A program made the translations under genes and the position numbers. From NCBI RefSeq assembly GCF_000972705.2, contig NZ_LATL02000177.1:1-43966 (forward strand): DNA of 43,966 bases, written 5' to 3'. This stretch comes from Limnoraphis robusta CS-951 (lineage in GTDB: Bacteria > Cyanobacteriota > Cyanobacteriia > Cyanobacteriales > Microcoleaceae). This document shows, in pieces, positions 9,364 through 29,343 of this stretch (the first letter of the stretch is position 1; the number at the start of each line of letters is the position of its first letter). The notes below the pieces were generated by a model. It made no database searches and was not told where the DNA came from. It was given only the letters and a program-made list of their open reading frames with translations.

Positions 9364-9995
9364 TCACTGGATAGTGATTTGAGCGAGATTGAAGCTTGGA
9401 TTGAACTGAGATGATATTGAAGTTGTTCTTTCTGCAAACTGTACATATGTTGAAATAATTTCCAGCAATATTCTTCAGTCAGACCACAGGTGATAGCACC
9501 TCGCATCACAACGTTAAAATACCAGTCATTGGGTGCAAGTTCTTCGGGTAATTTATTGACGACCGTATACGTTCTAACATCAGAATAACGTTGACCTTTG
9601 CAAAAAACCTCAACTCTTTCTGGTCGATAACTCCCCACATGAATAGCTTGATGATGATTGAAACACACTTCTTCTCGCTGATCTAAAAGATTGATCATTC
9701 GTCGAGGAAGGTGATACAAAACTCCTTCAACGTGACTCTTGGGATCTTGGACAATATCTAATGCGCCACAATTTCGGCGACGATATTGTAAATAAAATCC
9801 TAATCGATATCCTTTGATTAGAGCAGGCCCAACTACATAATGATGAGTGGGTTCTTTCATTGTTCGCTGCAAATCAACCGGACACATACATGATCCATAA
9901 GCAAAATAATAGAACATTTCTTCTACAATTGGCTTTTGCTTGTTTTGAAGTGATCCTGAATTGGAAATATTCGTAGACTGAAGCATTGTATCCAT
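9360..9995 (-). CDS. Gamma-glutamylcyclotransferase (GGCT)-like protein
   Basis: The fold begins at residue 27 with MFYYFAYGSCMCP, the GGCT substrate-binding YGS loop, and continues with VEGVLYHLP and LDQREE, whose glutamate is a good candidate for the catalytic acid. Family members release 5-oxoproline from gamma-glutamyl amines or glutathione breakdown products; BtrG of butirosin synthesis belongs here. The first 26 residues are an unconserved Ser/Asn-rich extension, and initiation at M27 is possible. The gene is convergent with the phosphoesterase gene (4-bp overlap) and lies 38 bp downstream of cysE in the same direction, so it may share a transcript with cysE. The exact substrate is not readable from sequence. 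Confidence 0.75.
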   Translation of the reverse strand: MDTMLQSTNISNSGSLQNKQKPIVEEMFYYFAYGSCMCPVDLQRTMKEPTHHYVVGPALIKGYRLGFYLQYRRRNCGALDIVQDPKSHVEGVLYHLPRRMINLLDQREEVCFNHHQAIHVGSYRPERVEVFCKGQRYSDVRTYTVVNKLPEELAPNDWYFNVVMRGAITCGLTEEYCWKLFQHMYSLQKEQLQYHLSSIQASISLKSLSSD

Positions 9996-10033: not shown

Positions 10034-10651
10034 TTAAACAAGATTGACGACTTTAGCTGTTAAGGAAGAAACGGAATGAGAAATAATGCGACCAGGTACA
10101 CCCACAACCGTAGAATGAGGGGGAACATCTTTTAAAACAACGGCACCTGCACCGACACGAACTTGATCGCCGATGGTGATATTACCGAGTATTTTACTTC
10201 CAGCACCTGCAATCACACCGCAGCCTAAAGTGGGATGACGTTTACCCGTTTCTTTTCCCGTTCCTCCCAGTGTTACCCCTTGATAAATTAAACAATAATC
10301 GCCAATAATTGCGGTTTCTCCAATCACAACTCCCATACCATGATCGATAAAAACATGATGACCAATTGTTGCACCCGGATGAATCTCTATTCCGGTTAAA
10401 AATCGAGCAAAATGAGACAGAAGTCGAGGAATAACGGGGAGGTTTAATTGATATAAAAAGTGGGCAATGCGATAAAATAATAAGGCTTGGGGGCCAGGAT
10501 AACAGAGTAGGACTTCTAACCAATTGCGAGCTGCCGGATCACGTTGAAAAGCGATCGCATAGTCAGAAATTACTATTTTAAAAGGATTCCAAAACCGAGT
10601 TAAATGGTTAGAATGAGATTGAATGTTATTAGAAGAAGTGGCAATCATCAT
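10034..10651 (-). CDS. cysE: Serine O-acetyltransferase
   Basis: The 205-residue protein makes O-acetylserine from serine and acetyl-CoA, the first step of cysteine synthesis. The N-terminal helical part (FRDPAARN-like, [20 protein letters not shown]) is followed by a left-handed beta-helix with [19 protein letters not shown] and GVVIGETA, the hexapeptide repeats and catalytic histidines of the family, then TGKRHPTLG and a GVPGRII end. Its length matches the short bacterial form rather than the longer E. coli type. The ATG at 10651 follows AGGATTTATA. It lies upstream of the GGCT-like gene in the same direction. A cysteine-using NRPS lies nearby (13155-17225), so local cysteine supply is an attractive but unproven link. 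Confidence 0.93.
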
Positions 10652-10866: not shown

Positions 10867-12942
10867 TTAAGCAAAAACGAAATGATTTTCTGATGCGATC
10901 GCCAAGTCACTAACTTCGATATTTTGCAGAGTTGCCAAATCAAAACCCGCGAAAGAAATTTGCGTATTTGCTCCCTCTTGAGTCAGAACCAAATCATCAA
11001 TAGAAGTTGCATCTGTACCACTCAGATCGAGGCGATCAATTCCCACTTCAAAATCAACAATCGTATCAATTCCCTCGGCAATATTCAAAACAAAAGTATC
11101 CGCACCTTCACCGCCTGAAAAATCATCGCCAGTTAGGGTGTCGTTACCCGAACCCCCATTAATAATATCATCGCCATCATCACCCCAGATGCGATCGTCG
11201 CCTTCACCTCCCAATAGGAGGTCATTTCCGGCTTTACCTCCGATGCGATCATCGCCGTTACCGCCCTCAATGGTGTCATCGCCGCCCACCGTACCGCCAG
11301 GTAAACGACTGTTACCGTCTCCGCGCAACACATCATCACCGTCATCGCCAAAAATCCGATCTTTTTGGAAGCCACCCGCTATCGTATCATTGCCTTCTCC
11401 TCCGTAAAGGCTATTATTACCCGCTAGACTGGGGAATCCGGGGATCACAGCTTGAGTTGCATCAATCAAATCATCCCCCGGACCTGCAAAAACACTATCG
11501 TGATTTCCGTCAAATTCACCATTGATATCACCGGCATTAAATACATCATCATTTGCAGTCCCGAAAATTTCTTCTGTTTCAGCTTCAAGTGCGGCGAGTC
11601 TTGCGGGTGAGGGTTCATTAACATGAGTCAGCAAATCATCGGGTTCTACAAATCGATGTGAACCTCGGTTCGGTTCAAAGATAACACCATCTGGAATAAG
11701 ATTAGGATAAAAATTGGTAAACCCAATCATTAAAGAAGAACGAGAAGCTAAATAATCGGGTTTAACTTCCGGTTCTAAACTATGACCAATACTAAACCCA
11801 AAAGGAGAACGCATCGTTTCTAAAGCATCATCCCAAGTTGGCGCTTCTGATACGGGTAAACCCCCGTCTGTTTGATAGAGTCCTAACTCATCCGGTCGAT
11901 TAATATTGTAGGGAACTTGAGAAATATAGACACCTCCTTTCCCCTGTTCATCGAGCATTTGATCGTAGTCAAATTCAAAGGTTACGCTGGCGGTACCGTC
12001 TGGATTTCCTTCAAAAATGGGAGTGCTAACCGCTTGAGTAACAGGTATGGATACCGCCAGATCTTCTACTCCGTCATTATTAACATCCAGACCGGAATTA
12101 TCTTCTGGAATACTCTCAAAGAGATCAAATTCGTTACCAATTAAATCCCCCGTTTGACCGTCATACCAAAAGTTACTTTCAACGCTGCCAATATTCGTTA
12201 GTATCCATAGTTGCCACCGTGCATCTAGGATTTCAACGGGAAACTGATTGTAGGGTGTAGAAACATCTTCGGGTCGGGTGAGATCAATGCGATAGGGAAG
12301 TCCGGTAAATTCAACATCCATTCTAACTGTATTCTCGGCTTTAGAATAAGTGATGGTTGTATCCATTCCCCCTTCTAACATTTCCGGTGTAACGATATCA
12401 ACTTCATCAATAAACGAAGTTCGAGCCGCATGGGAGATATACCGAATTCGTCCTTCATCATCCGGTGCAAATTGAGTGGCTAAATTCACAAACGCATCGG
12501 ACAGACTTTGAGTTGAAAGTTCGGAATTAAAGGAGCGATATTCTTCTAAATCAACAAAATCATAAAATTTCAGTCCGGCTTCTAAACCGATATCTTTAAG
12601 ATGAATCAACGCTTCAGAATTACTCAGATCGGATAATTCTGGATTCGCTTCTTTGTAAAAGTTTAAGTCAACAAATGGAGAGAATAAACGACCGTCTTCA
12701 ATTCCTTCATTCAGTAAATGTTCAAAGGCTTGACGAGGACTGAGATCGGATAAATCAGGATTGGAAACTCGCTGATAGTAATTAACATCAATGAAGGGAG
12801 AAAATTGTAATCCCCCATCGACTCCAACAGCTAAAAAATGATCGAGTCCTGTGAGAAATTCGCCTTGTTCAACGGCTTCTGCGGCTTCGGGATTAAATTC
12901 TAAATAGAATTCTTCATCGAAAACTTGATTGATTGAAAGCAT
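10867..12942 (-). CDS. Secreted RTX-type calcium-binding protein with N-terminal tandem repeats
   Basis: The start at 12942 has AGGAG eight bases upstream and gives 691 residues. The N-terminal 170 residues contain about four 44-residue repeats of the form F(S)PF(I/V)D-x-N(Y/F)Y-x-x-x-NP-E/D-LSDLS-x-x-x-A-x-x-H followed by G(I/L)E-x-G. The middle region (about 175-480) is a beta-rich extracellular domain with a DVNNDGVED calcium loop. Residues about 490-640 hold glycine-rich nonapeptide repeats (GGEGNDTI, GDDGDDVL, GGAGNDLL-like), which bind calcium and form a beta roll. There is no N-terminal signal, which fits type I secretion via the C-terminal region. It follows the NRPS operon in the same direction, but the roughly 210-bp gap makes co-transcription doubtful. 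It may be a surface or matrix protein. Confidence 0.85.
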   Translation of the reverse strand: MLSINQVFDEEFYLEFNPEAAEAVEQGEFLTGLDHFLAVGVDGGLQFSPFIDVNYYQRVSNPDLSDLSPRQAFEHLLNEGIEDGRLFSPFVDLNFYKEANPELSDLSNSEALIHLKDIGLEAGLKFYDFVDLEEYRSFNSELSTQSLSDAFVNLATQFAPDDEGRIRYISHAARTSFIDEVDIVTPEMLEGGMDTTITYSKAENTVRMDVEFTGLPYRIDLTRPEDVSTPYNQFPVEILDARWQLWILTNIGSVESNFWYDGQTGDLIGNEFDLFESIPEDNSGLDVNNDGVEDLAVSIPVTQAVSTPIFEGNPDGTASVTFEFDYDQMLDEQGKGGVYISQVPYNINRPDELGLYQTDGGLPVSEAPTWDDALETMRSPFGFSIGHSLEPEVKPDYLASRSSLMIGFTNFYPNLIPDGVIFEPNRGSHRFVEPDDLLTHVNEPSPARLAALEAETEEIFGTANDDVFNAGDINGEFDGNHDSVFAGPGDDLIDATQAVIPGFPSLAGNNSLYGGEGNDTIAGGFQKDRIFGDDGDDVLRGDGNSRLPGGTVGGDDTIEGGNGDDRIGGKAGNDLLLGGEGDDRIWGDDGDDIINGGSGNDTLTGDDFSGGEGADTFVLNIAEGIDTIVDFEVGIDRLDLSGTDATSIDDLVLTQEGANTQISFAGFDLATLQNIEVSDLAIASENHFVFA

Positions 12943-13154
12943 GACATAAACTCCTGTTTGGGTAGATGAATAATTCGGGATTCCCACCCCTTTCCCGACT
13001 GTGGAAAGTGACAGTTATTTGCTTTGTGAATTACAATTTTTTGAGATTGTCAATCACTGATTAATGAACTGTTTCCTAAACTTTCCACCCCTTGTTAGTT
13101 CTCCCTAAACCTCTGCGTGGGGAGAAATAAAACGGCCCCGATTTTCAAGGATAA

Positions 13155-16100
13155 TTATCTGTAGCTTTTTTTTCGGTATTTCATCTGAGAAAGAGGGGGA
13201 AGTGTTGAATAATTGAGAGAATTAGGGTTGGAACTGCTGTTTAAAATCAGTTTTGAGAGTTGACTGACAGCCGGAGATTTTAACAGCGAAAAATGGTTTC
13301 CTTCAACTTGAGAGAATGTAGTATGTTTCGGTAATAAAGAAGACCAAATTTCCTGAGATTCGTTAGCAACCCGCTCGTGAATGTTTTGCGTCGCCATCAC
13401 CAATAAACAAGGAATATCTACGGTTAAAGGTAAGGCTTGATAGCGATGCAAGGCGTTAAGATTAGCGCAAAAAACATCAAACAGAGGACGCAAATTATCT
13501 AGATTTCCCGAGGGAATAAAACCCCGTTGTTGTGCTTCTTTGAGAGCGGCGAGTACGATATCTTCAGAATCATTATTTACCCGAAGACAATCGAGGTTGA
13601 AAAGTTCTCCCGCTTCGGCAACATCGGAAACAAACCATGAAACCAGCGTCTTGAATTCTGCCTGTTTTCGCGGACGAGGTGCGGGACTATCAATTAATAC
13701 CAAATGTTCAACTTCAACCCCCTGTTTAATCAGTTGTTGAGCCGCTTCATAGGCAATAACGCCACCCATTGACCATCCGCCCAGACGGTAGGGAGCCGAG
13801 GGTTGTATCGCCCGAATTTCCTGTAAATAAACTTCTGCCATTTCAGGAATAGAATTCATCGGTTTGTATTGATGATCGCTTTGAGCCTGAACTCCGTAAA
13901 ACTGGAACTGGGCTGACAACAATTTACCCAAATCCTGATAACACAAAATACCGCCACCGGAAGGGTGAAACCAAAAGACTTTAGGATGAGTTTCTTGACC
14001 CGCAATTGAAACTAAATGTGACCGAGATAGGGTAGAATTTTTGTTGTGTTTATCGATGAATTCAGCTAATTTTGCTAAAGTGGGATGTTGCAACAGCATC
14101 GTTACCGGAAGTTCAACCCCAAAGCGATCGCTAATGGCTGCGGTTAAACGAACTGCTGTAAACGAGTTTCCGCCCAACTCAAAGAAATGATCCTCACGAT
14201 GAAGCTTGTCAATTTCGAGAACTTCTGACCATAAAATCGCCAATTTCTGTTCAGTTGGCGTGCGTGGAAGTTCGCTAGAATCGGCGTGTTGAACCTCTTG
14301 GGGAATAGGAAGTGCTTTGCGATCGACTTTTCCGGTTGCGCCTAAAGGGAGTTGATTCATAAACACAAATCGGGTCGGAATCATGTATTCTGGTAAAAAT
14401 TCCGTTGCGTGTTTTTGCAGTTCTTCACTCAGTATTGTTTCCCCTTCTTTAGCGACGATATAAGCCGCGATATAGGCTTCTTGAGGGCGCTCGCCGATCA
14501 CTTTAGCGACTGCATTTGCAACCCCATGATGACGCTGTAAAACGCTCTCGATTTCACCCAATTCTATTCGATGTCCCCGCACTTTCACTTGACCATCTTT
14601 TCGTCCGAGAAAATCAATATAACCCGGTGAACGTCTGACCCCCCAATCCCCCGTGCGGTAAATTCGTTCTTGAGAAATTGGATGAGTAATAAAAGAACGA
14701 GTTGTTTTTTCGGAATCTTGCCAATATCCCTCTGCAACACCCACCCCACCGATGTACAATTCACCGGGAATATTATCAGGACGAGGTTGCAATCTTTCAT
14801 CTAAAACATAGAAGGATTGATTGCTGAGAGGATAGCCGTAAGGGATGCTTGTCCAGGTCGAATCTACCCCGTCAATCTCGTAGTAAATTGACCAAATAGA
14901 AGCCTCCGTCGCCCCACCTAAACTAACAACTTTTGCGGCTAATATTTGCTTGAGTTTATCCGGTAATTGTACGGGAATCCAATCGCCACTCATCATCACC
15001 AAACGAATCGAAAGGCTATTATAAACCCGATTTCGTTCGAGATATTCCACTAAAAGATGAGCCAAGGCGGGAACCGAATTCCAAACAGTTACCCCGTATT
15101 TTTCACAAAGTTGAGTACACAAAGCGGGTTCTCGATTCGCACCGACAGGAGGTAATACTAAAGTTGCACCTGCGGCGATGCTTCCAAAGATATCGTAAAC
15201 TGATAAATCAAAACTCAGTTCAGAGATGCCAAAAATTACATCATCAGCGGTAATTTTAAATCGACGATTGATGTCTTCTATGGTGTTGACGGGGCCGAGA
15301 TGATTCAACATGACGCCTTTGGGTTGACCTGTTGAACCCGACGTAAAAATTACATAGGCTAAATCATCGGAAGATTGAATTCGGGGTAAATTGCTAAATT
15401 CAGCAACTAAATTTTCTGAACAATCGACCGCAATTTTAGTTAGATTTCCCAGACAATCATCGTTTAAATGTGCTTGAGAAGTGAGAACAATTCGACATCC
15501 ACACCGTTGTAATACATTGAGTTTTCGGTTCTCTGGAAAAGCCGGATCGATTGGTACATAAGCCGCCCCCGCAGCGAGAATTGCCTGAGCCGCAATAATT
15601 TGTTCCCAACCTTTAGCGGCGTAAATCGCAATTAATTCATTGGGTTGAACTTGATACTGTTGGCGTAAAGTCCAAGCAATTTGGTTAGAAAGAGCCAGCG
15701 CTTCTGCATAGGTTATCGTTCGACGGGAATCGATAATCAGGGGTTTATTTGGAAGTTTTTCGGCTTGCTCATAAAGGTATTCATGCAAACAATAATCGGA
15801 TAATAACGGGGCTGAAACTTGATTGTATTCAGTATGGTTTTGTTGCTGTTCCTGTGAGCGGAAATCAAAATAAGATTGGTTCCAAACTTTGTCATTTTCT
15901 GCAAAACTAGACACTAGAGAAACATAGGCGTTGAACATATCATCCAACACACCGGTCTCAAAAGCGGAATCCATCGTATCCCAGATTAATGAAACCCCTC
16001 CATCGGGTCGGCTAATGGCTTGATGATCGACAAGAACTTGAGGTGTTTCTAGACCACAAAATGCAACTTTTTCCCCTTCTAATTGAAAGATTCCTGATGG

Positions 16101-17225
16101 AATGGGTTGGCCTGGTTCTGCTAACATACTGACAAAAGCAACGGGACTGGCGGCGTGAAATGCGGCTCCATCTTGACGATTTCGTTCTTGCAAAACATCC
16201 AATCCACAAATCATTGAACGAGCTAAATCTCGAAAAACTTGGCGATGAATTTCCTGGGAATGCTGTTGAAAAGATTTGGCTTCTCGAAAATCAACTTCAA
16301 CCAAAATTGTACTCGCAAAATTCCCCAAAACTCTCGATAAATCTGCAAATTCCCGATCCCGATTCTGCACCATCATGGTCAAAGAATAGTGCTGAGTTTT
16401 TGACCAATAAGCAATGATTAAACTATAGGCGGTCAATAACAGGGTTGTTGGGCTGATTTCTTTAGTTTTAGCCCGTTGACAAATGATTTCCCATTGTTGG
16501 GCAGAAAGAACGTGTTTGCGGCGAATGAGTTGAGAACGACGTGCAGAATTGAGTTGAGAAACTAAGGGAAAAGTAGGGCCTTCTGGTAAGGTTTTTAAGC
16601 GTTCAAACCAATAGTTTTTAGCTCGTTGATAGCGCTCAGTGGCTCGTTTTTGTTGGATGTAAGCATCATAACCGCAGAGATCAAAGGAAATTTTGGGTAA
16701 ACAACAATTGGGGTTTGTATAAATCTCTGAGAGTTCGTGCAGTACCATTCTTACACTTGTTCCATCCAAAAATAACAAGTCAATATTGATGTGAACTCGG
16801 GTAAAATTCGGTAAACGTGTGATCTGTACTTCTATGTTGGGTGGTGTATCGGACTGGAGATCAGCCCGATAAAATGTTTGGCGAATTTCTGCAAGTTTTT
16901 GAGTCGTTTCTTCGCCGTTTAGATGACACAAATTTTGTTCGGGAATCTGATAGTTAATGGTGTCTTCTACAACATAAATTTCACCGGTGGGTAATACCAC
17001 TGCGCGTAATATTTCATGTCTGGCAATCAGAATGTTTAACGCTTGAGTGAGTGCTTGGCTGTCACATTCATCGAGATCAAATTCTAAGTAAAGATGGGGA
17101 TGAACATGAAGGTCAAAACTTGGCTGTTGTCCAACAAAATAAGCACGTTGGAGGGGAGAAAGTTGGGCAGAAGCAGAGAGAGTATGATTGAAAGAAGCTG
17201 GCATTTTCTCAGTATTAATCATCAT
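13155..17225 (-). CDS. One-module NRPS: heterocyclization-adenylation(Cys)-PCP-thioesterase
   Basis: The 1356-residue enzyme opens with a heterocyclization domain (about 15-455): LSPLQRAYFVG at the start and D149-x4-D154-x2-S157 in place of the HHxxxDG of normal condensation domains. The adenylation domain (about 475-975) has the A3 motif YVIFTSGSTGQPKG (625-638) and K966 in GATGKVD. Its pocket residues read D673, L674, Y677, N716, M744, S746, L769, I777, W778, nearly the DLYNLSLIW code for cysteine. The PCP has FFELGGNSF with S1021 as the phosphopantetheine site. The thioesterase has GGWSMGG (S1152), D1179 and H1311 in VEGNHFS. It should condense an acyl thioester with cysteine, close a thiazoline ring and release the acid. 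It starts six bases after the ACP gene. There is no epimerase or methyltransferase. Confidence 0.93.
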   Translation of the reverse strand: MMINTEKMPASFNHTLSASAQLSPLQRAYFVGQQPSFDLHVHPHLYLEFDLDECDSQALTQALNILIARHEILRAVVLPTGEIYVVEDTINYQIPEQNLCHLNGEETTQKLAEIRQTFYRADLQSDTPPNIEVQITRLPNFTRVHINIDLLFLDGTSVRMVLHELSEIYTNPNCCLPKISFDLCGYDAYIQQKRATERYQRAKNYWFERLKTLPEGPTFPLVSQLNSARRSQLIRRKHVLSAQQWEIICQRAKTKEISPTTLLLTAYSLIIAYWSKTQHYSLTMMVQNRDREFADLSRVLGNFASTILVEVDFREAKSFQQHSQEIHRQVFRDLARSMICGLDVLQERNRQDGAAFHAASPVAFVSMLAEPGQPIPSGIFQLEGEKVAFCGLETPQVLVDHQAISRPDGGVSLIWDTMDSAFETGVLDDMFNAYVSLVSSFAENDKVWNQSYFDFRSQEQQQNHTEYNQVSAPLLSDYCLHEYLYEQAEKLPNKPLIIDSRRTITYAEALALSNQIAWTLRQQYQVQPNELIAIYAAKGWEQIIAAQAILAAGAAYVPIDPAFPENRKLNVLQRCGCRIVLTSQAHLNDDCLGNLTKIAVDCSENLVAEFSNLPRIQSSDDLAYVIFTSGSTGQPKGVMLNHLGPVNTIEDINRRFKITADDVIFGISELSFDLSVYDIFGSIAAGATLVLPPVGANREPALCTQLCEKYGVTVWNSVPALAHLLVEYLERNRVYNSLSIRLVMMSGDWIPVQLPDKLKQILAAKVVSLGGATEASIWSIYYEIDGVDSTWTSIPYGYPLSNQSFYVLDERLQPRPDNIPGELYIGGVGVAEGYWQDSEKTTRSFITHPISQERIYRTGDWGVRRSPGYIDFLGRKDGQVKVRGHRIELGEIESVLQRHHGVANAVAKVIGERPQEAYIAAYIVAKEGETILSEELQKHATEFLPEYMIPTRFVFMNQLPLGATGKVDRKALPIPQEVQHADSSELPRTPTEQKLAILWSEVLEIDKLHREDHFFELGGNSFTAVRLTAAISDRFGVELPVTMLLQHPTLAKLAEFIDKHNKNSTLSRSHLVSIAGQETHPKVFWFHPSGGGILCYQDLGKLLSAQFQFYGVQAQSDHQYKPMNSIPEMAEVYLQEIRAIQPSAPYRLGGWSMGGVIAYEAAQQLIKQGVEVEHLVLIDSPAPRPRKQAEFKTLVSWFVSDVAEAGELFNLDCLRVNNDSEDIVLAALKEAQQRGFIPSGNLDNLRPLFDVFCANLNALHRYQALPLTVDIPCLLVMATQNIHERVANESQEIWSSLLPKHTTFSQVEGNHFSLLKSPAVSQLSKLILNSSSNPNSLNYSTLPPLSQMKYRKKSYR

Positions 17226-17231
17226 CGGTGT

Positions 17232-17528
17232 TTATTGAGTGATCAGGGTTTGGATAGCAGAATTTAAGGTTTGAACGGTGCGGAAGGTTTCAGGAGTTAA
17301 TAAATCATCGGGAAAGGTAATGTTAAATTCATCTTCTAGGTCAATCATTAGATTGGTAGCCGACATAGAATCTAGCCCCAAACTATTGAGGTCTGCTTCG
17401 TCATCAATTTGGTCAATTGATTGAACGAATTTTAAATGTTCAACCATACATTCTTTGAGCTTGTTTAGGGTGTTGTTTAGGGTGTTGTTCATGGTGTTGT
17501 TCATGGTGTTGTTCATGGTGTTATTCAT
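17232..17528 (-). CDS. Acyl carrier protein with 12-bp tandem repeat at its start
   Basis: The 98-residue protein is a discrete carrier protein. LGLDSMSATNL places the phosphopantetheine serine at S54, followed by DLEDEFNITFPDDLLTPETF, the usual helix III region. The first 22 residues are MNNT repeated four times and LNNT-type units after that, encoded by six 12-bp units at 17457-17528. Four units start with ATG, so translation could begin at any of them; the first ATG has CGGAG at proper spacing and is chosen. The gene is six bases upstream of the NRPS gene and 48 bp downstream of the decarboxylase gene. It presumably holds the acyl or aminoacyl starter that the heterocyclization domain joins to cysteine. 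Confidence 0.9.
   Translation of the reverse strand: MNNTMNNTMNNTMNNTLNNTLNKLKECMVEHLKFVQSIDQIDDEADLNSLGLDSMSATNLMIDLEDEFNITFPDDLLTPETFRTVQTLNSAIQTLITQ
17457..17528 (-). repeat. Six tandem 12-bp units (ATGAACAACACC)
   Basis: Read on the minus strand, the units are ATGAATAACACC, three ATGAACAACACC, one CTAAACAACACC and a decayed CTAAACAAGCTC. Because the unit is 12 bp, changes in copy number would alter only the N-terminal length of the carrier protein and the number of start codons, never the frame. Confidence 0.85.
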
Positions 17529-17576
17529 GGTAAATTCTCCGATTTGATAATAGGTAATGAGTCAGCAAGTTTGAGT

Positions 17577-18890
17577 TTAAACGGTTAATTCTAAGTTGCG
17601 AATTCGGGTAATTTTTACATCGCTTTCTAGAGAGATTAACCGTTCATGTCCAGTTCGCAGAGCGTAACATTCTACGGGGTTTCCATTGCGTAATGCGACT
17701 TCAACAGGAGCGGGACGAGTGAGGAAAGCAACCAGACTGGCTGTTAGTCCATAAGCGCCTACATTCGGAATGGCAACAATATCACCAATACGCAGGGATG
17801 AAGGTAAGTTAGAATTGCGAGCCAAACAATCTAAAGGACTACATAAAGGCCCTACAACAAAGGTTCTTTGTTCGGAAGAAACCTCAGTTGATGTTGTTTC
17901 GTTTTCTGCCGATAGATTGTGCATAAAAACATAACCTCTGGGAATTCTTCCGAGTCCAGACATTCCGCCTAAGTGGTTAATTCCCGCATCTAAAACCACA
18001 AATCGAGACTCATCTTTTCCGGGTTTAATGTCGAGAACCGTTGCAATCAACGTCCCACTAGAAGCCGCTAGATAACGCCCAGATTCAAACCAAACCTCAG
18101 CCGATAAACTGTGATGGCGCTTGGCTAATATTTCCTCTAATCGAGGTTTCAACGTGTCTAGGGAAACACTCGAATTGAGATTCGCAAACGGCCAGGGAAA
18201 ACCACCCCCCAAGTCGATAACTTTGGGTGTAAATCCCAGTTCTACAGTCAATCTTTCTACACAGTCAATTGCTGCGGTAACAGCTTCTACGATGGTATCT
18301 TCATTGTCTAACTGAGTTCCATAATAGATGTGATACCCAACTAATTCAACGGATGAACTCAGATTTTTGAGTTGTTCTTTACCCTCGGTAAGCACTGTTT
18401 CTTCAAAGCCGAATTGTGTCGCCGTTCCGCTCATCGCCAGTCCACTTTTTAGAGGGGTAATGGGGTTAACTCTCAGCAATAAACGAACGGATTTTTGAGT
18501 CGAACGAGCGGCGTTATCAATCCGTAAAACATCAGTCCATGATTCGGCAGAAAAAGCCGTTACGCCTGTTTCCATTGCTCGGCGAATTTCTCCATCGGTT
18601 TTCCCCGGCCCACTATAGAGAATATGGTCTAAAGAAATCCCGGAATTTTGAGCGACTAACAGTTCATTTTCTGAACAAACTTCTAAACAACATCCAGCTT
18701 GACGAACTGCATTCACAATCGCCGGGAGTGGGTTGGCTTTGAGTGAATAAAAGATTTTAGCATCCGTTGGTAAGGCTTGCTGAAGGGTCTTTACTTGTCG
18801 ATCAACGCTGTCGAGATCGTAGACATAAAGCGGTGAACCAAAGCGAGAAACTAATGTGTTCCAATTTTGAACAATTTGCTGTTTTTCCAT
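17577..18890 (-). CDS. PLP-dependent decarboxylase, BtrK / exosortase-A-associated type
   Basis: The 437-residue protein is a fold-III (alanine-racemase-like) decarboxylase of the diaminopimelate/ornithine decarboxylase group. K51 in FYSLKANP would bind PLP. Other landmarks are EVCSENELL (70-78), GYHIYYGTQ (185-193), the GGG phosphate loop at 228-230, ESGR at 269-272, C350 in GPLCSPLD and Y380 in VGAYG. The GPLC-x-PLD and PAPVEV features are closer to carrier-protein-linked decarboxylases such as BtrK and to the decarboxylases found with exosortase A loci than to LysA. It lies between the ligase (52 bp upstream) and the ACP (48 bp downstream), so the substrate is probably an amino acid held on that ACP. 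A lysine-biosynthetic LysA is the alternative but does not fit the context. Confidence 0.85.
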   Translation of the reverse strand: MEKQQIVQNWNTLVSRFGSPLYVYDLDSVDRQVKTLQQALPTDAKIFYSLKANPLPAIVNAVRQAGCCLEVCSENELLVAQNSGISLDHILYSGPGKTDGEIRRAMETGVTAFSAESWTDVLRIDNAARSTQKSVRLLLRVNPITPLKSGLAMSGTATQFGFEETVLTEGKEQLKNLSSSVELVGYHIYYGTQLDNEDTIVEAVTAAIDCVERLTVELGFTPKVIDLGGGFPWPFANLNSSVSLDTLKPRLEEILAKRHHSLSAEVWFESGRYLAASSGTLIATVLDIKPGKDESRFVVLDAGINHLGGMSGLGRIPRGYVFMHNLSAENETTSTEVSSEQRTFVVGPLCSPLDCLARNSNLPSSLRIGDIVAIPNVGAYGLTASLVAFLTRPAPVEVALRNGNPVECYALRTGHERLISLESDVKITRIRNLELTV

Positions 18891-18942
18891 CGAATTAACT
18901 CCTGTTTTCTGAAGGGATAAGGGATTAAATTATGAGCAAATG

Positions 18943-20466
18943 TCAACTTTTAGTTAACAGTTTTGACGTTTTCATTTCCACGAGCATTCGGCGATCAACT
19001 TTGCCGTTATAAGTGCTAGGAAGTCGATCTAATATCTCTACAGAATCAGGAATTTTGTAGGATTCTAACACCCGACTCAGTGTTGATAAGATCATTTTTT
19101 CGCTAACATCCGATTCGCCGACTACAAATAAAGCTAAATGATCGTCAATTTGCACCACTGAAGCATCTTTAACCCCCTCAATTTCTAAAGCTGCGGTTTC
19201 AATTTCTAAGGGATGTATCCGAAATCCTCGTCGCTTAATTTGGGCATCTCGTCGTCCAACAAAATAGAGATATCCGGCTTCATCCATTTGGAAATCATCG
19301 CCCGTATATAAAGCCCGCCCAATTCCTAACGGATGAGTGCGATATCGAACCTCTGTTTCCATCGGCGCTTTCCAATATCCCAAGGCAACATGACGCCCAC
19401 AAATTACCAATTCCCCGACTTCTCCAGGAGGTAATAAATTCCCCGCTTCATCAACAATAAAAGCTTGGGTATTATCGAGGGGTCGTCCAACAGAACCGGG
19501 GTGTTTTTCTGCTTCTTCAGGCGTTAAAATTGAGACGCGCTTACATTCGGTTAATCCATACATCGGATAGATTAATCCGTTGGGTAAGATATTTTTTAAT
19601 CGCTCAATATGTTGGGGACTGAGATGAGCGCCTGTGTTCGTAATTAAGCGAATTTCGGGGAGGGTTTGTTGACGTCGTTCTAGAATTCTGATCAGGGATT
19701 CAAACAGATTAGGAATTCCCGGAAGAATAGTAATCTTTTGTTGACGTAATGTACCCAATAAAGCGGGGCCGGCAAATTCAGAACGATTAACGACTAAACG
19801 AGCGCCAACTTGTGCGGCGAGAAAGGCTTGATACAGACCGTAATCGAAGGATAAAGGGAGAAATAAACCAATCGCATCCTCTGAAGAATAACGCAGTCGA
19901 GCTTGAATTTTTTCGACAACAAACAGCACGTTATCTTGAGTGAGAACAACCCCTCGCGGAGAACCTGTTGAACCGGAAGTGTAAATAATCAGGGCGGGGT
20001 CTGTATCAATTCCATTGACTCTAAAAGCCATTTCATCAAAGGCTTGGAGAGTTTCCGTTAAAGGTTGGGGTTCAAAGTTCTTAATCGCCGCGATATCGAG
20101 TTGTAAACACCCTGAAAAACATTCACCCTTTTCTCTTGTGGTTGGGTCTAAAAATATAACCTTGGGTTCAAGTTGACTGCTAATTTTTTGCAGTGAATTT
20201 GCTGCGGTGGCTTCGTGTAAAATGGTAGCCGTTGCGCCGAGTAAATTAGCGGCAAATAAAGCGAGTACAATTTCGGGTCTATTTTGAGTAAAAATCAGAA
20301 CTCGATCCCAACGTTTCACCCCCGCAGATTCTAACTGTTTGGCAAGCTGATAAACTGTGCTGATGGCTTCTGTATAGCTATAAGACTTTTCTCCATCTAA
20401 ATAGACTTGTTCTGGCCAACGTTCTGCCGCTTTTCGGAGCAGAGAAACCAGTATTCCTTGCTTCAT
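18943..20466 (-). CDS. AMP-forming acyl/aminoacyl ligase, exosortase-A-associated type
   Basis: This 507-residue ANL-superfamily enzyme activates a carboxylic acid as the adenylate and transfers it to a thiol. YTSGSTGSPRG (162-172) is the AMP-binding P-loop, YGLTECK the A5 motif, YTGDDF the A7 motif and K489 in YNGKVDRR the catalytic lysine. The A4 segment LSFDYGLYQ keeps an aspartate at the position that contacts the alpha-amino group in amino-acid-activating domains, so an amino acid substrate is possible. The sequence resembles ligases encoded beside exosortase A and a partner decarboxylase and ACP in Proteobacteria. It is 52 bp upstream of the decarboxylase gene. It probably loads the ACP encoded at 17232-17528. 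Confidence 0.87.
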   Translation of the reverse strand: MKQGILVSLLRKAAERWPEQVYLDGEKSYSYTEAISTVYQLAKQLESAGVKRWDRVLIFTQNRPEIVLALFAANLLGATATILHEATAANSLQKISSQLEPKVIFLDPTTREKGECFSGCLQLDIAAIKNFEPQPLTETLQAFDEMAFRVNGIDTDPALIIYTSGSTGSPRGVVLTQDNVLFVVEKIQARLRYSSEDAIGLFLPLSFDYGLYQAFLAAQVGARLVVNRSEFAGPALLGTLRQQKITILPGIPNLFESLIRILERRQQTLPEIRLITNTGAHLSPQHIERLKNILPNGLIYPMYGLTECKRVSILTPEEAEKHPGSVGRPLDNTQAFIVDEAGNLLPPGEVGELVICGRHVALGYWKAPMETEVRYRTHPLGIGRALYTGDDFQMDEAGYLYFVGRRDAQIKRRGFRIHPLEIETAALEIEGVKDASVVQIDDHLALFVVGESDVSEKMILSTLSRVLESYKIPDSVEILDRLPSTYNGKVDRRMLVEMKTSKLLTKS

Positions 20467-20509
20467 AATTTTTGTTCCCGGTGATGATAAATATTGCTCG
20501 TTTGTTGGG

Positions 20510-20537
20510 AGGACTTACGCAGTTTAAAGTAAGTCCT
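20510..20537. repeat. Inverted repeat between PEP-CTERM and ligase genes
   Basis: AGGACTTAC at 20510-20518 and GTAAGTCCT at 20529-20537 are perfect 9-bp arms around a 10-base loop. No T run follows on the minus strand, so this is unlikely to be a full terminator; it may be a processing or attenuation hairpin within the operon, or an insertion-sequence end remnant. Confidence 0.5.
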
Positions 20538-20558
20538 GTACGTTAAAAACGATTACTC

Positions 20559-21224
20559 TTAGCCGAGGGTTTTTTTACGAAAAACGAGTCCGAAAATACC
20601 CAACCCCATGAATCCGAGAACAGAAGACGGTTCGGGAACTTTTACCCCTTCAAACTGGGTAATCTGACTATCAGAACAAGGGAATAAACCATCGCCTGCT
20701 GTGAGTGAACATTGACCGTTAAAAGTGGTGAGTTGCTGTTCTAATAAATCCGGCTCATCACTAGCAGGGCCGTGATAGCGAACAACCGATTGAATTTCTG
20801 CGGCAAAAGAATCAAGTAACCCATTTCCAAACAAGAGTTGTTGAGGATTATCGGGTAAATAATTTTCAGTTAAACTGGCGCTAAAATCACCGATTTCACT
20901 CGCATCAACAACATCTCCTGTTGCCCAGATTACGGAAGCTTGAACATCAGGATTAGCAAAGTCATCGACACCACAACCCTCTACACAAAATTCAGGATTG
21001 TTAAAGATTAACCACCAAACACTATAGGCACCTGGATCGAGATTTGAGGTGTTAATATTTAAGTCGAGACTATTTGAAGTTCTGTTCAGTGTGGCAACAG
21101 AATCAACAATCGGTGTCCGGGTGGGTAACTCAAAAAGGTTGCTCGTTTGTAAGGTGGCGGCTTGGGCGGGTGCAGCTAAAGAAACGCCTAAAACAACGAA
21201 AGCAGAGGTTAATTTGTTCAACAT
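20559..21224 (-). CDS. PEP-CTERM sorting-domain protein
   Basis: The ATG at 21224 (AAGGACG eight bases upstream) gives 221 residues; the open frame extends farther upstream, but that part overlaps the MFS gene. It begins with a signal peptide, MLNKLTSAFVVLGVSLAAP ending AQA, and ends with VPEPSSVLGFMGLGIFGLVF and a basic tail, the full PEP-CTERM signal that exosortases recognise. The middle is an acidic beta-rich domain with several cysteines (EFCVEGCG, NGQCSLTAG, LFPCSD) and no family I know. It sits inside the biosynthetic operon, 53 bp after the MFS gene and 92 bp before the ligase gene. No exosortase lies in this window, so it must rely on one elsewhere in the genome. The presence of a secreted anchored protein in a small-molecule operon is unusual. 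Confidence 0.85.
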   Translation of the reverse strand: MLNKLTSAFVVLGVSLAAPAQAATLQTSNLFELPTRTPIVDSVATLNRTSNSLDLNINTSNLDPGAYSVWWLIFNNPEFCVEGCGVDDFANPDVQASVIWATGDVVDASEIGDFSASLTENYLPDNPQQLLFGNGLLDSFAAEIQSVVRYHGPASDEPDLLEQQLTTFNGQCSLTAGDGLFPCSDSQITQFEGVKVPEPSSVLGFMGLGIFGLVFRKKTLG

Positions 21225-21277
21225 GATGTCCGTCCTTGTAATCAGTAATAAAGGCAGATATTGAGCGAAAAAAACAG

Positions 21278-22402
21278 TTAAGAAGATTGATGCTGCAAAG
21301 ATTTGAAACTGAGGAAACAAGCTGGCATCAACAGCAATGTTCCGGCAACAAACAAGGGTTGATAACTGTGCAAAAGTTGGAAGCAAAAAGCCATTGTCAG
21401 GGCGCCGATCGCTTGCGAACAGGCGAAAATTGAGGTAGAAATTGACCAAGCCCAGGAAAACAATTGAGTACCGAGTATTCGACGCAATTCTGCTGCGGTT
21501 AACAAGACGATCGCGGGAACACAAGCGCCTGTGAGGGTTGATCCCAGAGCGAGTAATTCAATGTGTTCAGTCGAAGCCAGTATCAACAACGCCAGGGTTT
21601 TCGAGAGGTAAGCCAGATGTAAGGCGGTTGCCGATCCGAGTCGTTTGGATAATTCTGTTGCCAGATAGGGGCCAAAGATCGCGCCCACTCCGAACAATTG
21701 CCACAACTCGTTTCCGACTTCTAAACCCAGTTCATTGCTGACATAATCACTCAAATAAACCGTTGCGGGAATGTAAGCGATCGCATCCAAGCCGTAAGCG
21801 AAAATCAGCAATTTCGGAAGGGAAACTCTAAAATCGGTGGGGGAATTTAAGGACGGCTCAGGTGATTCTGCCCAATATAAGCTTGAAGTAAACAGTCCAA
21901 AACAGAGTAAAATCATCGGAATCAACATGAATATTAGCTCTGAACGAAACTCAATCAAACTAGCAGAAATACAAGCCCCCAAACCAATCCCGCTAAACGT
22001 CCAAAATTGAGTTTGATGACGGTCTTCTGGAGTCCCCAAACTGAGGGCTAAAATTGGGCCGCTTACCATTAAACAGGCACCGAAAAAACCAAGAACACTG
22101 CGGGTTAAAAGCCAGATTCCCACCGTTGGGGATAAAGCTTCTAAAACCAGGCAAAGGCTACTCAAAAACAAACTGATTTGTAATAATCGACTCGCTTTAA
22201 GTTTTCGGAGTAGCCAGGGTGCGGTCGTGGCGCCGGCAGCATAAGCAATTAATAAGAATGCTGCGATTTTACTGGGTGCGTTGGTCGGCCATAATCCTTG
22301 ATGAACCGCTACAGCAGCCAACGGTGTAAACGCCATTCGCGCAATACCAACCCCCACAAACGTTGCACCCCCACCGATAATTCTGGCTTGGAAAAGTTTC
22401 AT
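21278..22402 (-). CDS. MFS transporter (YbfB/YjiJ-like)
   Basis: The 374-residue protein has about eleven or twelve hydrophobic segments and no large soluble domain. The N-terminal GGGATFVGVGIARMAFTPL and the TAPWLLRKL loop resemble the YbfB/YjiJ group of the major facilitator superfamily. The gene lies 39 bp after the diiron oxygenase gene and 53 bp before the PEP-CTERM gene, all in one direction. Export of the product of the neighbouring NRPS pathway is the most likely role, judged by context only. The substrate cannot be read from sequence. Confidence 0.8.
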   Translation of the reverse strand: MKLFQARIIGGGATFVGVGIARMAFTPLAAVAVHQGLWPTNAPSKIAAFLLIAYAAGATTAPWLLRKLKASRLLQISLFLSSLCLVLEALSPTVGIWLLTRSVLGFFGACLMVSGPILALSLGTPEDRHQTQFWTFSGIGLGACISASLIEFRSELIFMLIPMILLCFGLFTSSLYWAESPEPSLNSPTDFRVSLPKLLIFAYGLDAIAYIPATVYLSDYVSNELGLEVGNELWQLFGVGAIFGPYLATELSKRLGSATALHLAYLSKTLALLILASTEHIELLALGSTLTGACVPAIVLLTAAELRRILGTQLFSWAWSISTSIFACSQAIGALTMAFCFQLLHSYQPLFVAGTLLLMPACFLSFKSLQHQSS

Positions 22403-22441
22403 GCGGCTTGCCTTTTGTACTTCCGAACTTTGAGATAAGAT

Positions 22442-23353
22442 TTAGTTGAGAACTGCTGCGGGTTCAGCTAAGACGTCGGGGGTAGAAAATAAGCCTATTT
22501 TGGTGAAAAACTTAGCAGTTCCCGAGATTAATTGAGAGTTATATTGATGACGGGTCGGATGAGCGAGCAATTCTTTCCGCATCTTTCCAGGCTGTTCAAG
22601 ACCTGCATCGATATACATTTCACGTCGATACAGTTTTTGAACGGAAAGCTGCATAAAGGTTTTAACCGCAGTTTCAATTTCCAAAAGTCTTTGTTGTGGA
22701 TAGGTGTCTTTTAACTGCTGATAAAACAAGTCAACATAGAGGCGACCATAGGTAATGTGACGACCTTCATCGAGATGGTGCAACTCATTCATTTTTTGAA
22801 CAAATTGAGGTAATGTTGTATCTTTACCCATGCGGCGATTATAAAAATCAACAATTTCCTCAAAGATCAAAATCCGAGTAAATAGCATGAAGTTGGCAAT
22901 ATCAGCTTCGGGTAAATGAGCAACGGCTAAGGCTCGATCTGGATAAATTTTGCCCCCATATTGCAGACAAAATTTAGAGAAATACCACATATGTTCATTT
23001 TCTTCTGAAATTAAATGATGCAGATATTCAGAAAGAAGTTCAAAACCTGGGGTGTGTAGTCTGCTAGTCATTTCGACTAAGAGTTCACGAATTCCTGTTA
23101 CATTCAAACTGCAAAAGTTGACAAATTCCCACTGACTCAGTTCAATTTTCTGTTCTTCAGAAAGTTCATGTTCAAAGCGAGTGCCATGAATGGACATCAG
23201 ATCGAATGACATCCAAAACTTGCCTTCTTCCAGGCTTTCTGGCCAAATTAGTTCTTTAAATGGATCGTAAGGATCGGCATTCGTGGCTTTAACTAATTGA
23301 GCCAGAACTTTTTCAAATTTAGATGTATCTTGAGTTAATGCTAAGGTACTCAC
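22442..23353 (-). CDS. AurF-type diiron oxygenase, first gene of the NRPS operon
   Basis: I chose GTG at 23353 because AAAGGAAAA precedes it at ideal distance, giving 303 residues; an ATG at 23401 in frame has no such site. The helical protein carries the ligand pattern of p-aminobenzoate N-oxygenase (AurF/CmlI family): E118-x-x-H121 in EENEHMW, E165/E166 in IFEEIVDFYNRRM, and H192-x3-E196-x2-H199 in HHLDEGRH. Such enzymes use a dinuclear iron site and oxygen to oxidise amines to hydroxylamine or nitro groups, and some act on carrier-bound substrates. It leads the seven-gene operon. Oxidation of an amine made by the downstream decarboxylase is a reasonable guess; hydroxylation of a carbon is the alternative. 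Confidence 0.83.
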   Translation of the reverse strand: MSTLALTQDTSKFEKVLAQLVKATNADPYDPFKELIWPESLEEGKFWMSFDLMSIHGTRFEHELSEEQKIELSQWEFVNFCSLNVTGIRELLVEMTSRLHTPGFELLSEYLHHLISEENEHMWYFSKFCLQYGGKIYPDRALAVAHLPEADIANFMLFTRILIFEEIVDFYNRRMGKDTTLPQFVQKMNELHHLDEGRHITYGRLYVDLFYQQLKDTYPQQRLLEIETAVKTFMQLSVQKLYRREMYIDAGLEQPGKMRKELLAHPTRHQYNSQLISGTAKFFTKIGLFSTPDVLAEPAAVLN

Positions 23354-23474
23354 GAGTCTGTTTTCCTTTGTATGATGACTACAAAAAAGCTCAATTGACA
23401 TCTTGGCATTTAGAACTAGCCGCTTTATGTTGGGCTTGAATACTTAAAAAATGCTTTGATGTTCGCTTACTTTT

Positions 23475-28675: not shown

Positions 28676-28846
28676 TTAGTCCTTTTCAAAGGTTTGTTTA
28701 TTAGACGGGGAATTCATTTCCCGACAGACTTCAAATTCCACTCTGAGATTTTCTAACTCAGTTTGAAGCTGTTCCCGAGTGTTGGTTAACTCAAAAATTG
28801 CTCTTTCGTAATATTATAGAGGTGTTTTGTTGTCCTGGTAATTCAT
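28676..28846 (-). pseudogene. Degenerate coiled-coil small gene (fullest copy in array)
   Basis: From an ATG at 28846, preceded by AAAGGATAAATCTA, the frame reads MNYQDNKTPL, then a TAA stop, then continues open for 45 codons as YYERAIFELTNTREQLQTEL and on through ENLRVEFEVCREMNSPS to a stop at 28676. The region after the early stop has strong heptad-like coiled-coil character. Apart from the single early stop it looks like a complete 56-codon gene, so I call it a recent pseudogene. Its last third is translated from the hairpin repeat, which supplies the stop codon. Two shorter relatives lie at 28927 and 29112. Confidence 0.5.
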
Positions 28847-28926
28847 TAGATTTATCCTTTATTCAAATCCTACCAGGGAATTAATTCCCTGTCTGATAGT
28901 GAAAGTCGGTTTTAACCGACTCAAGT

Positions 28927-29031
28927 TTAATTGTTAGTCCTTTTCAAAGGACTTTGTTTATTAGACGGGGAATTCATTCCCCGAAAGACTTCAAATTCCA
29001 CTAGAGGGGTTTTGTTGTCGTTGGAATTCAT
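28927..29031 (-). CDS. 34-residue mini-ORF, internally deleted copy
   Basis: This ORF starts with ATG at 29031, has the same AAAGGATAAATCTA leader as its relatives, and encodes MNSNDNKTPLVEFEVFRGMN followed by a 14-residue tail ending KRTNN. Compared with the copy at 28676-28846, 75 bp encoding the coiled coil are missing in frame, joining TPL directly to VEFEV. It may be translated, but the product would be a stub; its retention in tandem copies could be passive. Confidence 0.35.
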   Translation of the reverse strand: MNSNDNKTPLVEFEVFRGMNSPSNKQSPLKRTNN

Positions 29032-29111
29032 TAGATTTATCCTTTATTCAAATCCTACCAGGGAATTAATTCCCTGTCTGATAGCGAAAGTCGGTTAAAA
29101 CCGACTCAAGT

Positions 29112-29216
29112 TTAATTGTTAGTCCTTTTCAAAGGACTTTGTTTATTAGACGGGGAATTCATTCCCCGAAAAACTTCAAATTCCACTAGATGGGTTTTGT
29201 TGTCGTTGGAATTCAT
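29112..29216 (-). CDS. 34-residue mini-ORF, internally deleted copy
   Basis: This ORF starts at 29216 and differs from the copy at 28927-29031 by about one residue (THL for TPL), while carrying the same 75-bp in-frame deletion. The near identity of this unit and its neighbour indicates recent tandem duplication of the deleted form. Confidence 0.35.
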   Translation of the reverse strand: MNSNDNKTHLVEFEVFRGMNSPSNKQSPLKRTNN

Positions 29217-29343
29217 TAGATTTATCTTTTATTCAAATCCTACCAGGGAATTAATTCCCTGTCTGATAGTGAAAGTCGGTTAAAACCGACTCAAGTTTAA
29301 TTGTTAGTCCTTTTCAAAGGACTTTGTTTATTAGACGGGGAAT

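What the first reader, a model, noticed from the sequence alone, without database searches (positions are those of the whole stretch)
13155..23401. Seven-gene operon for an undescribed thiazoline-type natural product
Seen: diiron oxygenase, MFS transporter, PEP-CTERM protein, AMP-ligase, PLP decarboxylase, ACP and Cy-A(Cys)-PCP-TE NRPS lie on one strand with gaps of 6-92 bp. Known: Cy domains make thiazolines from cysteine; BtrK-type decarboxylases act on carrier-bound amino acids; AurF-type enzymes oxidise amines. Inference: an acid is loaded on the ACP, decarboxylated, oxidised, condensed with cysteine, cyclised and released. I know of no characterised pathway with this exact gene set, though I cannot search. 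A pure PLP mechanism needs a free alpha-carboxylate, so the acyl group would have to be linked to the ACP through a side-chain carboxylate, as in Glu-gamma-S-BtrI.
Basis: partly seen in the sequence, partly recalled or inferred. Interest (0 to 1): 0.88.

Follow-up and report, generated by a model that had tools for sequence, protein, structure and literature searches.

The report
N-oxidised beta-alanine–thiazoline gene cluster
A cyanobacterium carries a small, rarely found set of genes that probably turns aspartate and cysteine into a tiny sulfur-ring compound with an oxidised nitrogen; relatives of the set exist in other bacteria, but we found no described product, so it is a concrete lead to a new natural product rather than a new kind of biology.

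Summary
In detail: seven same-strand genes with gaps of 6-92 bp. The core five (AurF-type oxygenase, AMP-ligase, BtrK/VinO-type decarboxylase, ACP, Cy-A(Cys)-PCP-TE NRPS) recur together in Okeania, Roholtiella, a Moorena-like genome and Marinobacter; Myxococcus keeps four, without the NRPS. The set was rare in the genomes sampled. The cluster is probably larger than drawn: a serine O-acetyltransferase gene (CysE, 10034-10651) and an RTX-repeat gene (10867-12987) lie in the same block missing from a sister genome; Marinobacter has CysE directly before aurF, and the Moorena-like cluster has the RTX gene. The PEP-CTERM gene was not found in the other clusters.

Best mechanism (inferred): L-Asp is loaded through its beta-carboxylate on the ACP, decarboxylated to beta-alanyl-ACP, N-oxidised by the AurF-type enzyme, condensed with Cys, cyclised to a thiazoline and released. 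The oxygenase lacks the QExxH of cyanobacterial halogenases and folds like CmlI/AurF. Core steps have described precedents (vicenistatin, AFC-BC11, valdiazen, althiomycin); the combination was not seen in the papers searched. Product and activity are untested.

The parts
22442..23401 (-). AurF/CmlI-type diiron oxygenase (probable true start GTG at 23353, 303 aa)
21278..22402 (-). MFS_4 (YbfB-type) exporter
   Evidence: PF06779 5e-30; homologue in the Roholtiella (63%), Moorena-like (65%) and Marinobacter (31%) loci
20559..21224 (-). PEP-CTERM secreted/surface protein (not a conserved member)
   Evidence: PF07589 5e-6; no tblastn match above 45 bits in the 86 loci or the 9
18943..20466 (-). stand-alone AMP-forming beta-aminoacyl:ACP ligase, VinN type
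   Evidence: best PDB match 3wvn 258 bits; VinN D230/S299/R331 correspond to D208/T278/R310, invariant in 7 of 7 cluster ligases
17577..18890 (-). type III PLP decarboxylase, BtrK/VinO type
   Evidence: BtrK 207 bits against 138 for the best DAP decarboxylase; 41%, 39% and 31% to proteins of Dba-type context, MeAsp-type context and BtrK
17232..17528 (-). stand-alone acyl carrier protein (LGLDSM serine)
   Evidence: PF00550 1e-10; alignment of five cluster ACPs
13155..17225 (-). single-module NRPS Cy-A(Cys)-PCP-TE
   Evidence: Pfam; code DLYNMSLIWK, DxxxxD, carrier serine, GWSMGG and GNHF read from the alignment
15861..17168 (-). Cy (heterocyclisation) domain, DLLFLD at residues 149-154
   Evidence: relatives
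14310..15773 (-). A domain, predicted Cys
14055..14246 (-). PCP domain
13275..13982 (-). type I thioesterase domain
   Evidence: PF00975 4.7e-36; Ser in GWSMGG, His in GNHF
10867..12987 (-).
   Evidence: RTX repeats; 59% identical homologue between the two aurF copies of the Moorena-like cluster; inside the block missing from the sister genome
   Evidence: TIGR01172 241.7 bits, cut-off 210.65; CysE directly upstream of aurF in Marinobacter L009, 45%; inside the block missing from the sister genome
9645..23890 (.). block present here and absent from the closest relative held (G1201)
   Evidence: blastn/tblastn and junction alignment; right end approximate

Best explanation
A minimal thiotemplated pathway. 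The ligase adenylates L-aspartate (or a close analogue) at its beta-carboxylate and loads it on the free-standing ACP. The PLP decarboxylase removes the free alpha-carboxylate, giving beta-alanyl-S-ACP. The AurF-type diiron enzyme oxidises the amine while it is still ACP-bound (to hydroxylamine, oxime, nitroso or nitro; level not known). The NRPS Cy domain condenses this starter with cysteine on the PCP and cyclises it to a 2-substituted thiazoline-4-carboxyl thioester, which the TE releases. CysE probably supplies O-acetylserine for cysteine and the MFS protein probably exports the product. Shown here: gene content, domain order, pocket and motif residues, fold of the oxygenase, co-occurrence. 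Inferred: every reaction, the order of oxidation and condensation, the substrate, the product.
Against: Seven NRPS rows share a contig length with a decarboxylase row but with no AurF row (9299254, 9884, 14528, 27542, 15321, 19135, 358838); the last is Marinobacter SS21, where AurF is present (L009), so row matching undercounts, but the other six leave open that oxidation is optional. The Nostoc CHAB 5834 row (13167) pairs NRPS with AurF but with no decarboxylase row, and the Nostoc SO-36 plasmid has no decarboxylase at all. Myxococcus loci have aurF-lig-dec-acp without this NRPS. AurF's D135 is Glu here, and one of the seven metal ligands is not settled (E92 or E106). The oxygenase has no PDB sequence hit at E 1e-3. 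A ligase with nearly the same pocket code occurs in Sinorhizobium without a decarboxylase in the stretch shown, so the code does not prove beta-alanine formation. No chemistry was tested.
Confidence: 0.5

Rival explanations
1. Same assembly line, but glutamate is loaded through its gamma-carboxylate and decarboxylated to a GABA thioester, as in butirosin.
For: BtrK is the best solved relative of the decarboxylase; PDB 7ru7 names it L-glutamyl-[BtrI acyl-carrier protein] decarboxylase.
Against: The decarboxylase is closer to proteins in aspartate-type contexts than to BtrK (41%, 39% against 31%); the ligase is VinN-like with VinN's pocket residues.
Confidence: 0.12
2. The diiron protein acts on carbon, not nitrogen: a CylC-type halogenase or C-H oxygenase working on the ACP-bound acyl group.
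For: CylC/NocO-type halogenases resemble AurF, are widespread in cyanobacteria, and NocO acts on an ACP-tethered chain (PMC12101540 and PMC8406957, passages).
Against: Those enzymes have QExxH; here the position is Glu in 25 of 25 relatives, and the closest solved folds are the N-oxygenases CmlI and AurF. No CylC sequence or structure was in the comparison.
Confidence: 0.1
3. The amine is oxidised late, on the released or PCP-bound thiazoline, or the oxygenase oxidises another position of the finished molecule; the first steps are as in the best explanation.
For: In althiomycin the AurF-like Alb2 is proposed to oxidise the amine of an assembled intermediate to an oxime (PMC3445576, passages). 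Clusters apparently without AurF may exist. A Nostoc CHAB 5834 row pairs NRPS with AurF.
Against: In Myxococcus the oxygenase occurs with lig-dec-acp but without this NRPS, which fits an ACP-bound or earlier substrate better.
Confidence: 0.2
4. The operon belongs to an exosortase/PEP-CTERM surface-polymer system and not to a secreted small molecule.
For: Ligase and decarboxylase hit the exosortase-A-associated families TIGR03098 and TIGR03099 best in NCBIfam, and a PEP-CTERM gene lies in the operon.
Against: Both scores are far below the curated cut-offs (313 against 592, 270 against 478 bits); no PEP-CTERM match in the other clusters; a Cys-specific Cy module does not fit.
Confidence: 0.03

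Closest known systems
Beta-aminoacyl-ACP starter cassettes: VinN/VinL/VinO (vicenistatin), FlvN (fluvirucin), BolO/BolC/BolN (bolagladin), AfcQ/AfcK/AfcP (AFC-BC11)
   Same: Stand-alone ligase, ACP and PLP decarboxylase; same ligase pocket residues as VinN apart from Ser to Thr.
   Different: Those feed polyketide synthases, a multi-module NRPS or a C-domain-free assembly; here an AurF-type oxygenase and a single Cy-A(Cys)-PCP-TE module follow.
Valdiazen/fragin (HamC, PvfB)
   Same: AurF-homologous enzyme said to oxidise a carrier-tethered amino acid (PMC11659414, passages).
   Different: Val on an NRPS, alpha-amine; here a beta-amine on a separate ACP, followed by heterocyclisation, is inferred.
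Althiomycin (Alb2/AlmD)
   Same: AurF-like N-oxygenase with an NRPS and an MFS protein (PMC3445576, passages); that the product has a thiazoline is recalled.
   Different: Large NRPS and NRPS-PKS with an O-methyltransferase; no ligase-decarboxylase-ACP cassette in the gene table seen.
Lyngbyapeptin B / barbamide terminal module (LynB6, LynB7/BarH)
   Same: Cy-A(Cys)-PCP-TE proposed to release a 2-thiazoline-4-carboxylic acid in a cyanobacterium (PMC10127204, passages).
   Different: The diiron enzyme LynB7 resembles PtmU3/BarH and makes a thiazole by oxidative decarboxylation; the oxygenase here is PF11583.
Butirosin BtrK
   Same: Best PDB match of the decarboxylase.
   Different: 31% identity (BtrK residues 10-399); acts on a Glu-BtrI thioester.

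Membership tests
Beta-aminoacyl-ACP starter cassette (VinN/O/L type) | Stand-alone adenylating enzyme with the residues equivalent to VinN D230, S299, R331 | tested here: met
   D208, T278, R310 in 7 of 7 cluster ligases; Ser is replaced by Thr, as also in the SAT1 ligase near a methylaspartate mutase
Beta-aminoacyl-ACP starter cassette (VinN/O/L type) | Adjacent type III PLP decarboxylase and free-standing ACP with the carrier serine | tested here: met
Beta-aminoacyl-ACP starter cassette (VinN/O/L type) | Loads Asp or 3-methyl-Asp and decarboxylates it on the ACP | not testable with these tools
   needs enzyme assays
AurF/CmlI N-oxygenases | PF11583 above curated cut-off | tested here: met
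   107.7 bits against 29.6
AurF/CmlI N-oxygenases | Ferritin-like fold closest to AurF/CmlI | tested here: met
AurF/CmlI N-oxygenases | 3-His/4-carboxylate diiron site with Asp before the first ExxH | tested here: inconclusive
   E134, H137, E181, H208, E212, H215 assigned by alignment and D211 kept; Glu133 in place of Asp; fourth carboxylate is E92 or E106
AurF/CmlI N-oxygenases | Oxidises an amine | not testable with these tools
   needs enzyme assays
CylC-type dimetal halogenases | QExxH motif | tested here: not met
   Glu at that position in 25 of 25; column fixed by alignment with other cyanobacterial PF11583 proteins; motif definition from PMC12101540 (passage)
Cy-type Cys-activating NRPS module | DxxxxD in the Cy domain | tested here: met
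   DLLFLD here; DxxxxD in 5 of 6 aligned NRPSs, the sixth (Nostoc SO-36) lacks the region
Cy-type Cys-activating NRPS module | Cys specificity code | tested here: met
   DLYNMSLIWK, positions mapped by motif from recalled PheA numbering; the Cys assignment is recalled, and PMC12283262 lists this code among those giving Ox-modified moieties (passage)
Exosortase-A-associated ligase/decarboxylase (TIGR03098/TIGR03099) | Score above curated cut-off | tested here: not met
   312.8 against 592.35 and 270.2 against 478.45 bits
Siderophore cluster | TonB receptor gene in or next to the cluster | tested here: not met
   Search of G003, G995, G002, G001 at E 1e-10: none in the cluster; none at all in G995; nearest about 16 kb away in G002; the G001 cluster contig is only 18.7 kb, and the window's own genome was not held

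The most novel reading that the evidence does not exclude
A dispersed family of minimal clusters makes N-oxidised beta-alanyl-thiazoline-4-carboxylates (hydroxylamine, oxime or nitro), a route in which a beta-aminoacyl-ACP cassette is intercepted by an N-oxygenase on the ACP and then captured by a Cys-cyclising module, possibly oligomerised by the TE. In myxobacteria the same N-oxidised beta-alanyl-ACP would instead leave by a fused reductase. GST and AhpD-like partner genes in related clusters hint at a reactive, electrophilic product.
Probability: 0.35. Interest if true: 0.75.

Novelty: new variant of a known kind. Interest (0 to 1): 0.57.

Why it matters
If right, a five-gene line gives a very small, easily reconstituted product with an N-O group next to a thiazoline, and a test of whether an AurF-type enzyme works on an aliphatic beta-amine bound to a separate ACP. 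That would extend both the beta-aminoacyl starter cassettes (known to feed polyketide synthases and, in bolagladin, an NRPS) and the AurF family. The rare but wide distribution (cyanobacteria, Marinobacter, a myxobacterial variant) and the likely co-carried CysE make it a compact genome-mining target.

Tried and rejected
Halogenase reading: rejected on the missing QExxH and on the fold. Exosortase/PEP-CTERM system: rejected on cut-offs and on non-conservation of the PEP-CTERM gene. A Marinobacter 388-aa protein looked like a distant PEP-CTERM counterpart by eye, but BLASTP gave E 0.11. Siderophore: no TonB receptor in the tested clusters. LynB7-like thiazole formation: that enzyme is said to resemble PtmU3/BarH and this one is PF11583. 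Promoter and terminator scans were at or below chance level. Rfam and ARAGORN gave nothing. A first motif script matched the wrong ExxH (SEYLH instead of EENEH); the alignment replaced it. GC content shows no island signal: 42.1% against 38.7% and 42.6% in the flanks. Not in print: judged from titles and starts of abstracts in the capped listings (0 papers; 20 of 1,739; 28 of 31; 9 of 10; 15 of 39; 5 of 5; 4 of 4; 12 of 181; 10 of 27), plus passages of the papers opened; only open-licence PMC papers are held, and MIBiG was not available.

Results against or beside the reading, in one place: NRPS+decarboxylase contigs without an AurF row, and one NRPS+AurF contig without a decarboxylase row; Myxococcus clusters without the NRPS; the partial GGACT match in the sister genome suggests deletion there rather than arrival here; six actinobacterial loci of the wider AurF group (L041, L067, L077, L078, L084, L086) have a 31-33% decarboxylase match about 5 kb away without ligase or ACP matches, and L029 (Streptomyces niger) has Cy (29%) and A (46%) matches 2-4 kb from its AurF without ligase or decarboxylase. 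Only 6 of the 18 plasmid records with an AurF match and the best 80 of 249 genome loci were examined.
Full report
WHAT IS THERE. The seven genes lie on the minus strand at 13155-23401 as described, with the stated families and gaps of 39, 53, 92, 52, 48 and 6 bp. The window's NRPS is 100% identical over the searched region to a protein that NCBI labels Limnoraphis robusta (P0241), so the source is probably that cyanobacterium (inference). No whole genome was held for the window.

RELATED CLUSTERS. A genome-contig scan with an AurF alignment kept the best 80 of 249 loci; with six of the 18 plasmid records that matched AurF, 86 loci were tested by tblastn with the window's proteins. AurF, ligase and decarboxylase occur together in 5 of 86 (L007 Okeania SIO2F4, L008 Roholtiella LEGE 12411, L009 Marinobacter SS21, L010 and L014 Myxococcus), the ACP also in 4 (the L014 contig ends inside the decarboxylase). 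The Cy-A-TE NRPS is present with them in 3 of 86 (L007, L008, L009). L001, a Nostoc commune SO-36 plasmid, has a truncated NRPS plus aurF; no decarboxylase lies anywhere on that plasmid. The other 80 have AurF at 32-47% without the set; six of them show a 31-33% decarboxylase match about 5 kb away, and several carry other NRPS matches. A further complete cluster is in G995, whose contig length (914706) equals that given for Moorea sp. SIOASIH proteins. Identities to the window in the four complete clusters: AurF 66-75%, ligase 50-70%, decarboxylase 54-69%, NRPS 45-66%.

RARITY. AurF of this clade was found in 1 of 386 sampled genomes of the phylum, 3 of 388 of the order, 5 of 195 of the myxobacterial phylum (there AurF is part of a frame of 989-1094 aa whose N-terminus looks, by eye and untested, like a thioester reductase), and 1 of 369 of the Marinobacter class. 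The decarboxylase at E 1e-60 was found in 1 of 20, 1 of 61 and 1 of 185 genomes, each time only in the genome that the search was centred on. The draws overlap, and the genomes that gave the handles were themselves in the samples.

ASSOCIATION. In the protein lists, 9 of 14 AurF rows with 51% identity or more on contigs of at least 6 kb share a longest-contig length with a listed decarboxylase row; 0 of 48 more distant AurF rows do. Of 25 NRPS relatives of the same architecture class (P0242-P0267 without P0252), 11 share a contig length with a decarboxylase row, 5 with an AurF row and 4 with both; 0 of the 11 other NRPS rows share either. Only the longest contig per cluster and the best 120 rows per list are shown, so a missing match is not an absence: Okeania's NRPS row matches neither partner, and Marinobacter's has no AurF match, although the loci hold both. 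A tree of 40 AurF proteins puts all 13 cluster-linked rows on one side of a branch (24 rows, 100/99) with 11 rows of no assigned group, and none among the other 16.

BORDERS. The closest relative held (G1201, aspartate kinase 92%) lacks window 9645 to about 23890. The block holds CysE, the RTX-repeat gene and all seven genes. The gene across its left end (gamma-glutamylcyclotransferase-like, 9360-9995, 211 aa here) is matched only over residues 109-196 in the relative, which suggests a deletion there rather than an arrival here. CysE is a serine O-acetyltransferase (TIGR01172 above cut-off). The relative's two CysE matches are only 74% and 70% identical to it, and Marinobacter has CysE directly before aurF. 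CysE was not found in the fetched Okeania, Roholtiella or Moorena-like stretches. The RTX-repeat protein has a 59% homologue inside the Moorena-like cluster. The MFS gene recurs in three clusters.

STEP 1, LOADING. The ligase's best solved relative is 3wvn, which I recall as VinN. [quoted passage not shown] The ten-residue code DYYPTTMRVK differs in two places from that of a Streptomyces SAT1 ligase encoded near a methylaspartate mutase and a PKS. A Sinorhizobium ligase without a decarboxylase nearby has a similar code, so the code speaks for the acid, not for its decarboxylation.

STEP 2, DECARBOXYLATION. BtrK leads the solved relatives by about 70 bits over the best DAP decarboxylase. By BLASTP the window protein is 41% identical to one in a ligase-decarboxylase-ACP-acyl-CoA dehydrogenase row (bolagladin-like context), 39% to the SAT1 protein and 31% to BtrK. 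In AFC-BC11 the corresponding trio was reconstituted with L-Asp in vitro (PMC12186527, passages). A PLP mechanism needing a free alpha-carboxylate therefore favours Asp-beta-S-ACP to beta-alanyl-S-ACP.

STEP 4, THIAZOLINE AND RELEASE. The NRPS has Cy DxxxxD, Cys code DLYNMSLIWK, a PCP serine and a TE with Ser and His motifs; no oxidase domain was found, so a thiazoline rather than a thiazole is expected. A Cy-A(Cys)-PCP-TE terminus is proposed to release a thiazoline-4-carboxylic acid in lyngbyapeptin B (PMC10127204, passages).

FUNCTION. Related clusters carry GST genes (Roholtiella, Marinobacter) and AhpD/CMD-like genes (Roholtiella, Moorena-like), which would suit a reactive product, but the window has neither. 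There is no TonB receptor in the four tested clusters, so a siderophore role is not supported.

VERDICT. A real, recurring and rare cluster; a new variant built from known modules.

Noticed in passing
window 17461-17531: 12-bp tandem repeat (5.9 copies) at the ACP start encodes MNNT-like repeats with several in-frame ATGs; the four other aligned cluster ACPs lack it.
   Followed up: partly
L104 5609-6520 and 8842-9522: The Moorena-like cluster has two aurF copies flanking the RTX-repeat gene; the second has an internal stop.
   Followed up: partly
L001 7237-10929: Nostoc commune SO-36 plasmid: the NRPS lacks most of its Cy domain and lies next to a TniQ-family gene; no ligase, decarboxylase or ACP match in the stretch and no decarboxylase on the plasmid.
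   Followed up: partly
L001 11108-11962, L008 9110-9934, L009 17923-18837: A conserved secreted-looking protein of about 275 aa between or next to NRPS and aurF in Nostoc, Roholtiella and Marinobacter (51-98% identical); no Pfam family for the first two, the third not scanned.
   Followed up: partly
L001 13261-15330, L008 14420-16489, L110 2100-3530: DUF6851/VCPO_2nd (vanadium-haloperoxidase-like) genes near three of the clusters.
   Followed up: no
L002, L003, L004, L005: More distant AurF genes sit with small carrier proteins, aminoacyl-tRNA-ligase-related proteins and/or nitronate monooxygenases (not every locus has all three), suggesting carrier-bound amino acids oxidised to nitro compounds.
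   Followed up: no
contigs of length 9299254, 9884, 14528, 27542, 15321, 19135: NRPS and decarboxylase rows share a contig length with no AurF row listed: possible AurF-less versions of the cluster.
   Followed up: no
L029: Streptomyces niger locus with AurF (42%), Cy (29%) and A (46%) matches close together but no ligase or decarboxylase match.
   Followed up: no
window 28817-29349: 185-bp tandem repeat, 2.9 copies, 96% matches.
   Followed up: no
window 4867-6162 and 34108-35316: Resolvase/recombinase-family gene and an IS605 OrfB/TnpB-like gene; the former is also in the sister genome, 92%.
   Followed up: no
window 40172-41617: Animal-type haem peroxidase homologue (PF03098).
   Followed up: no
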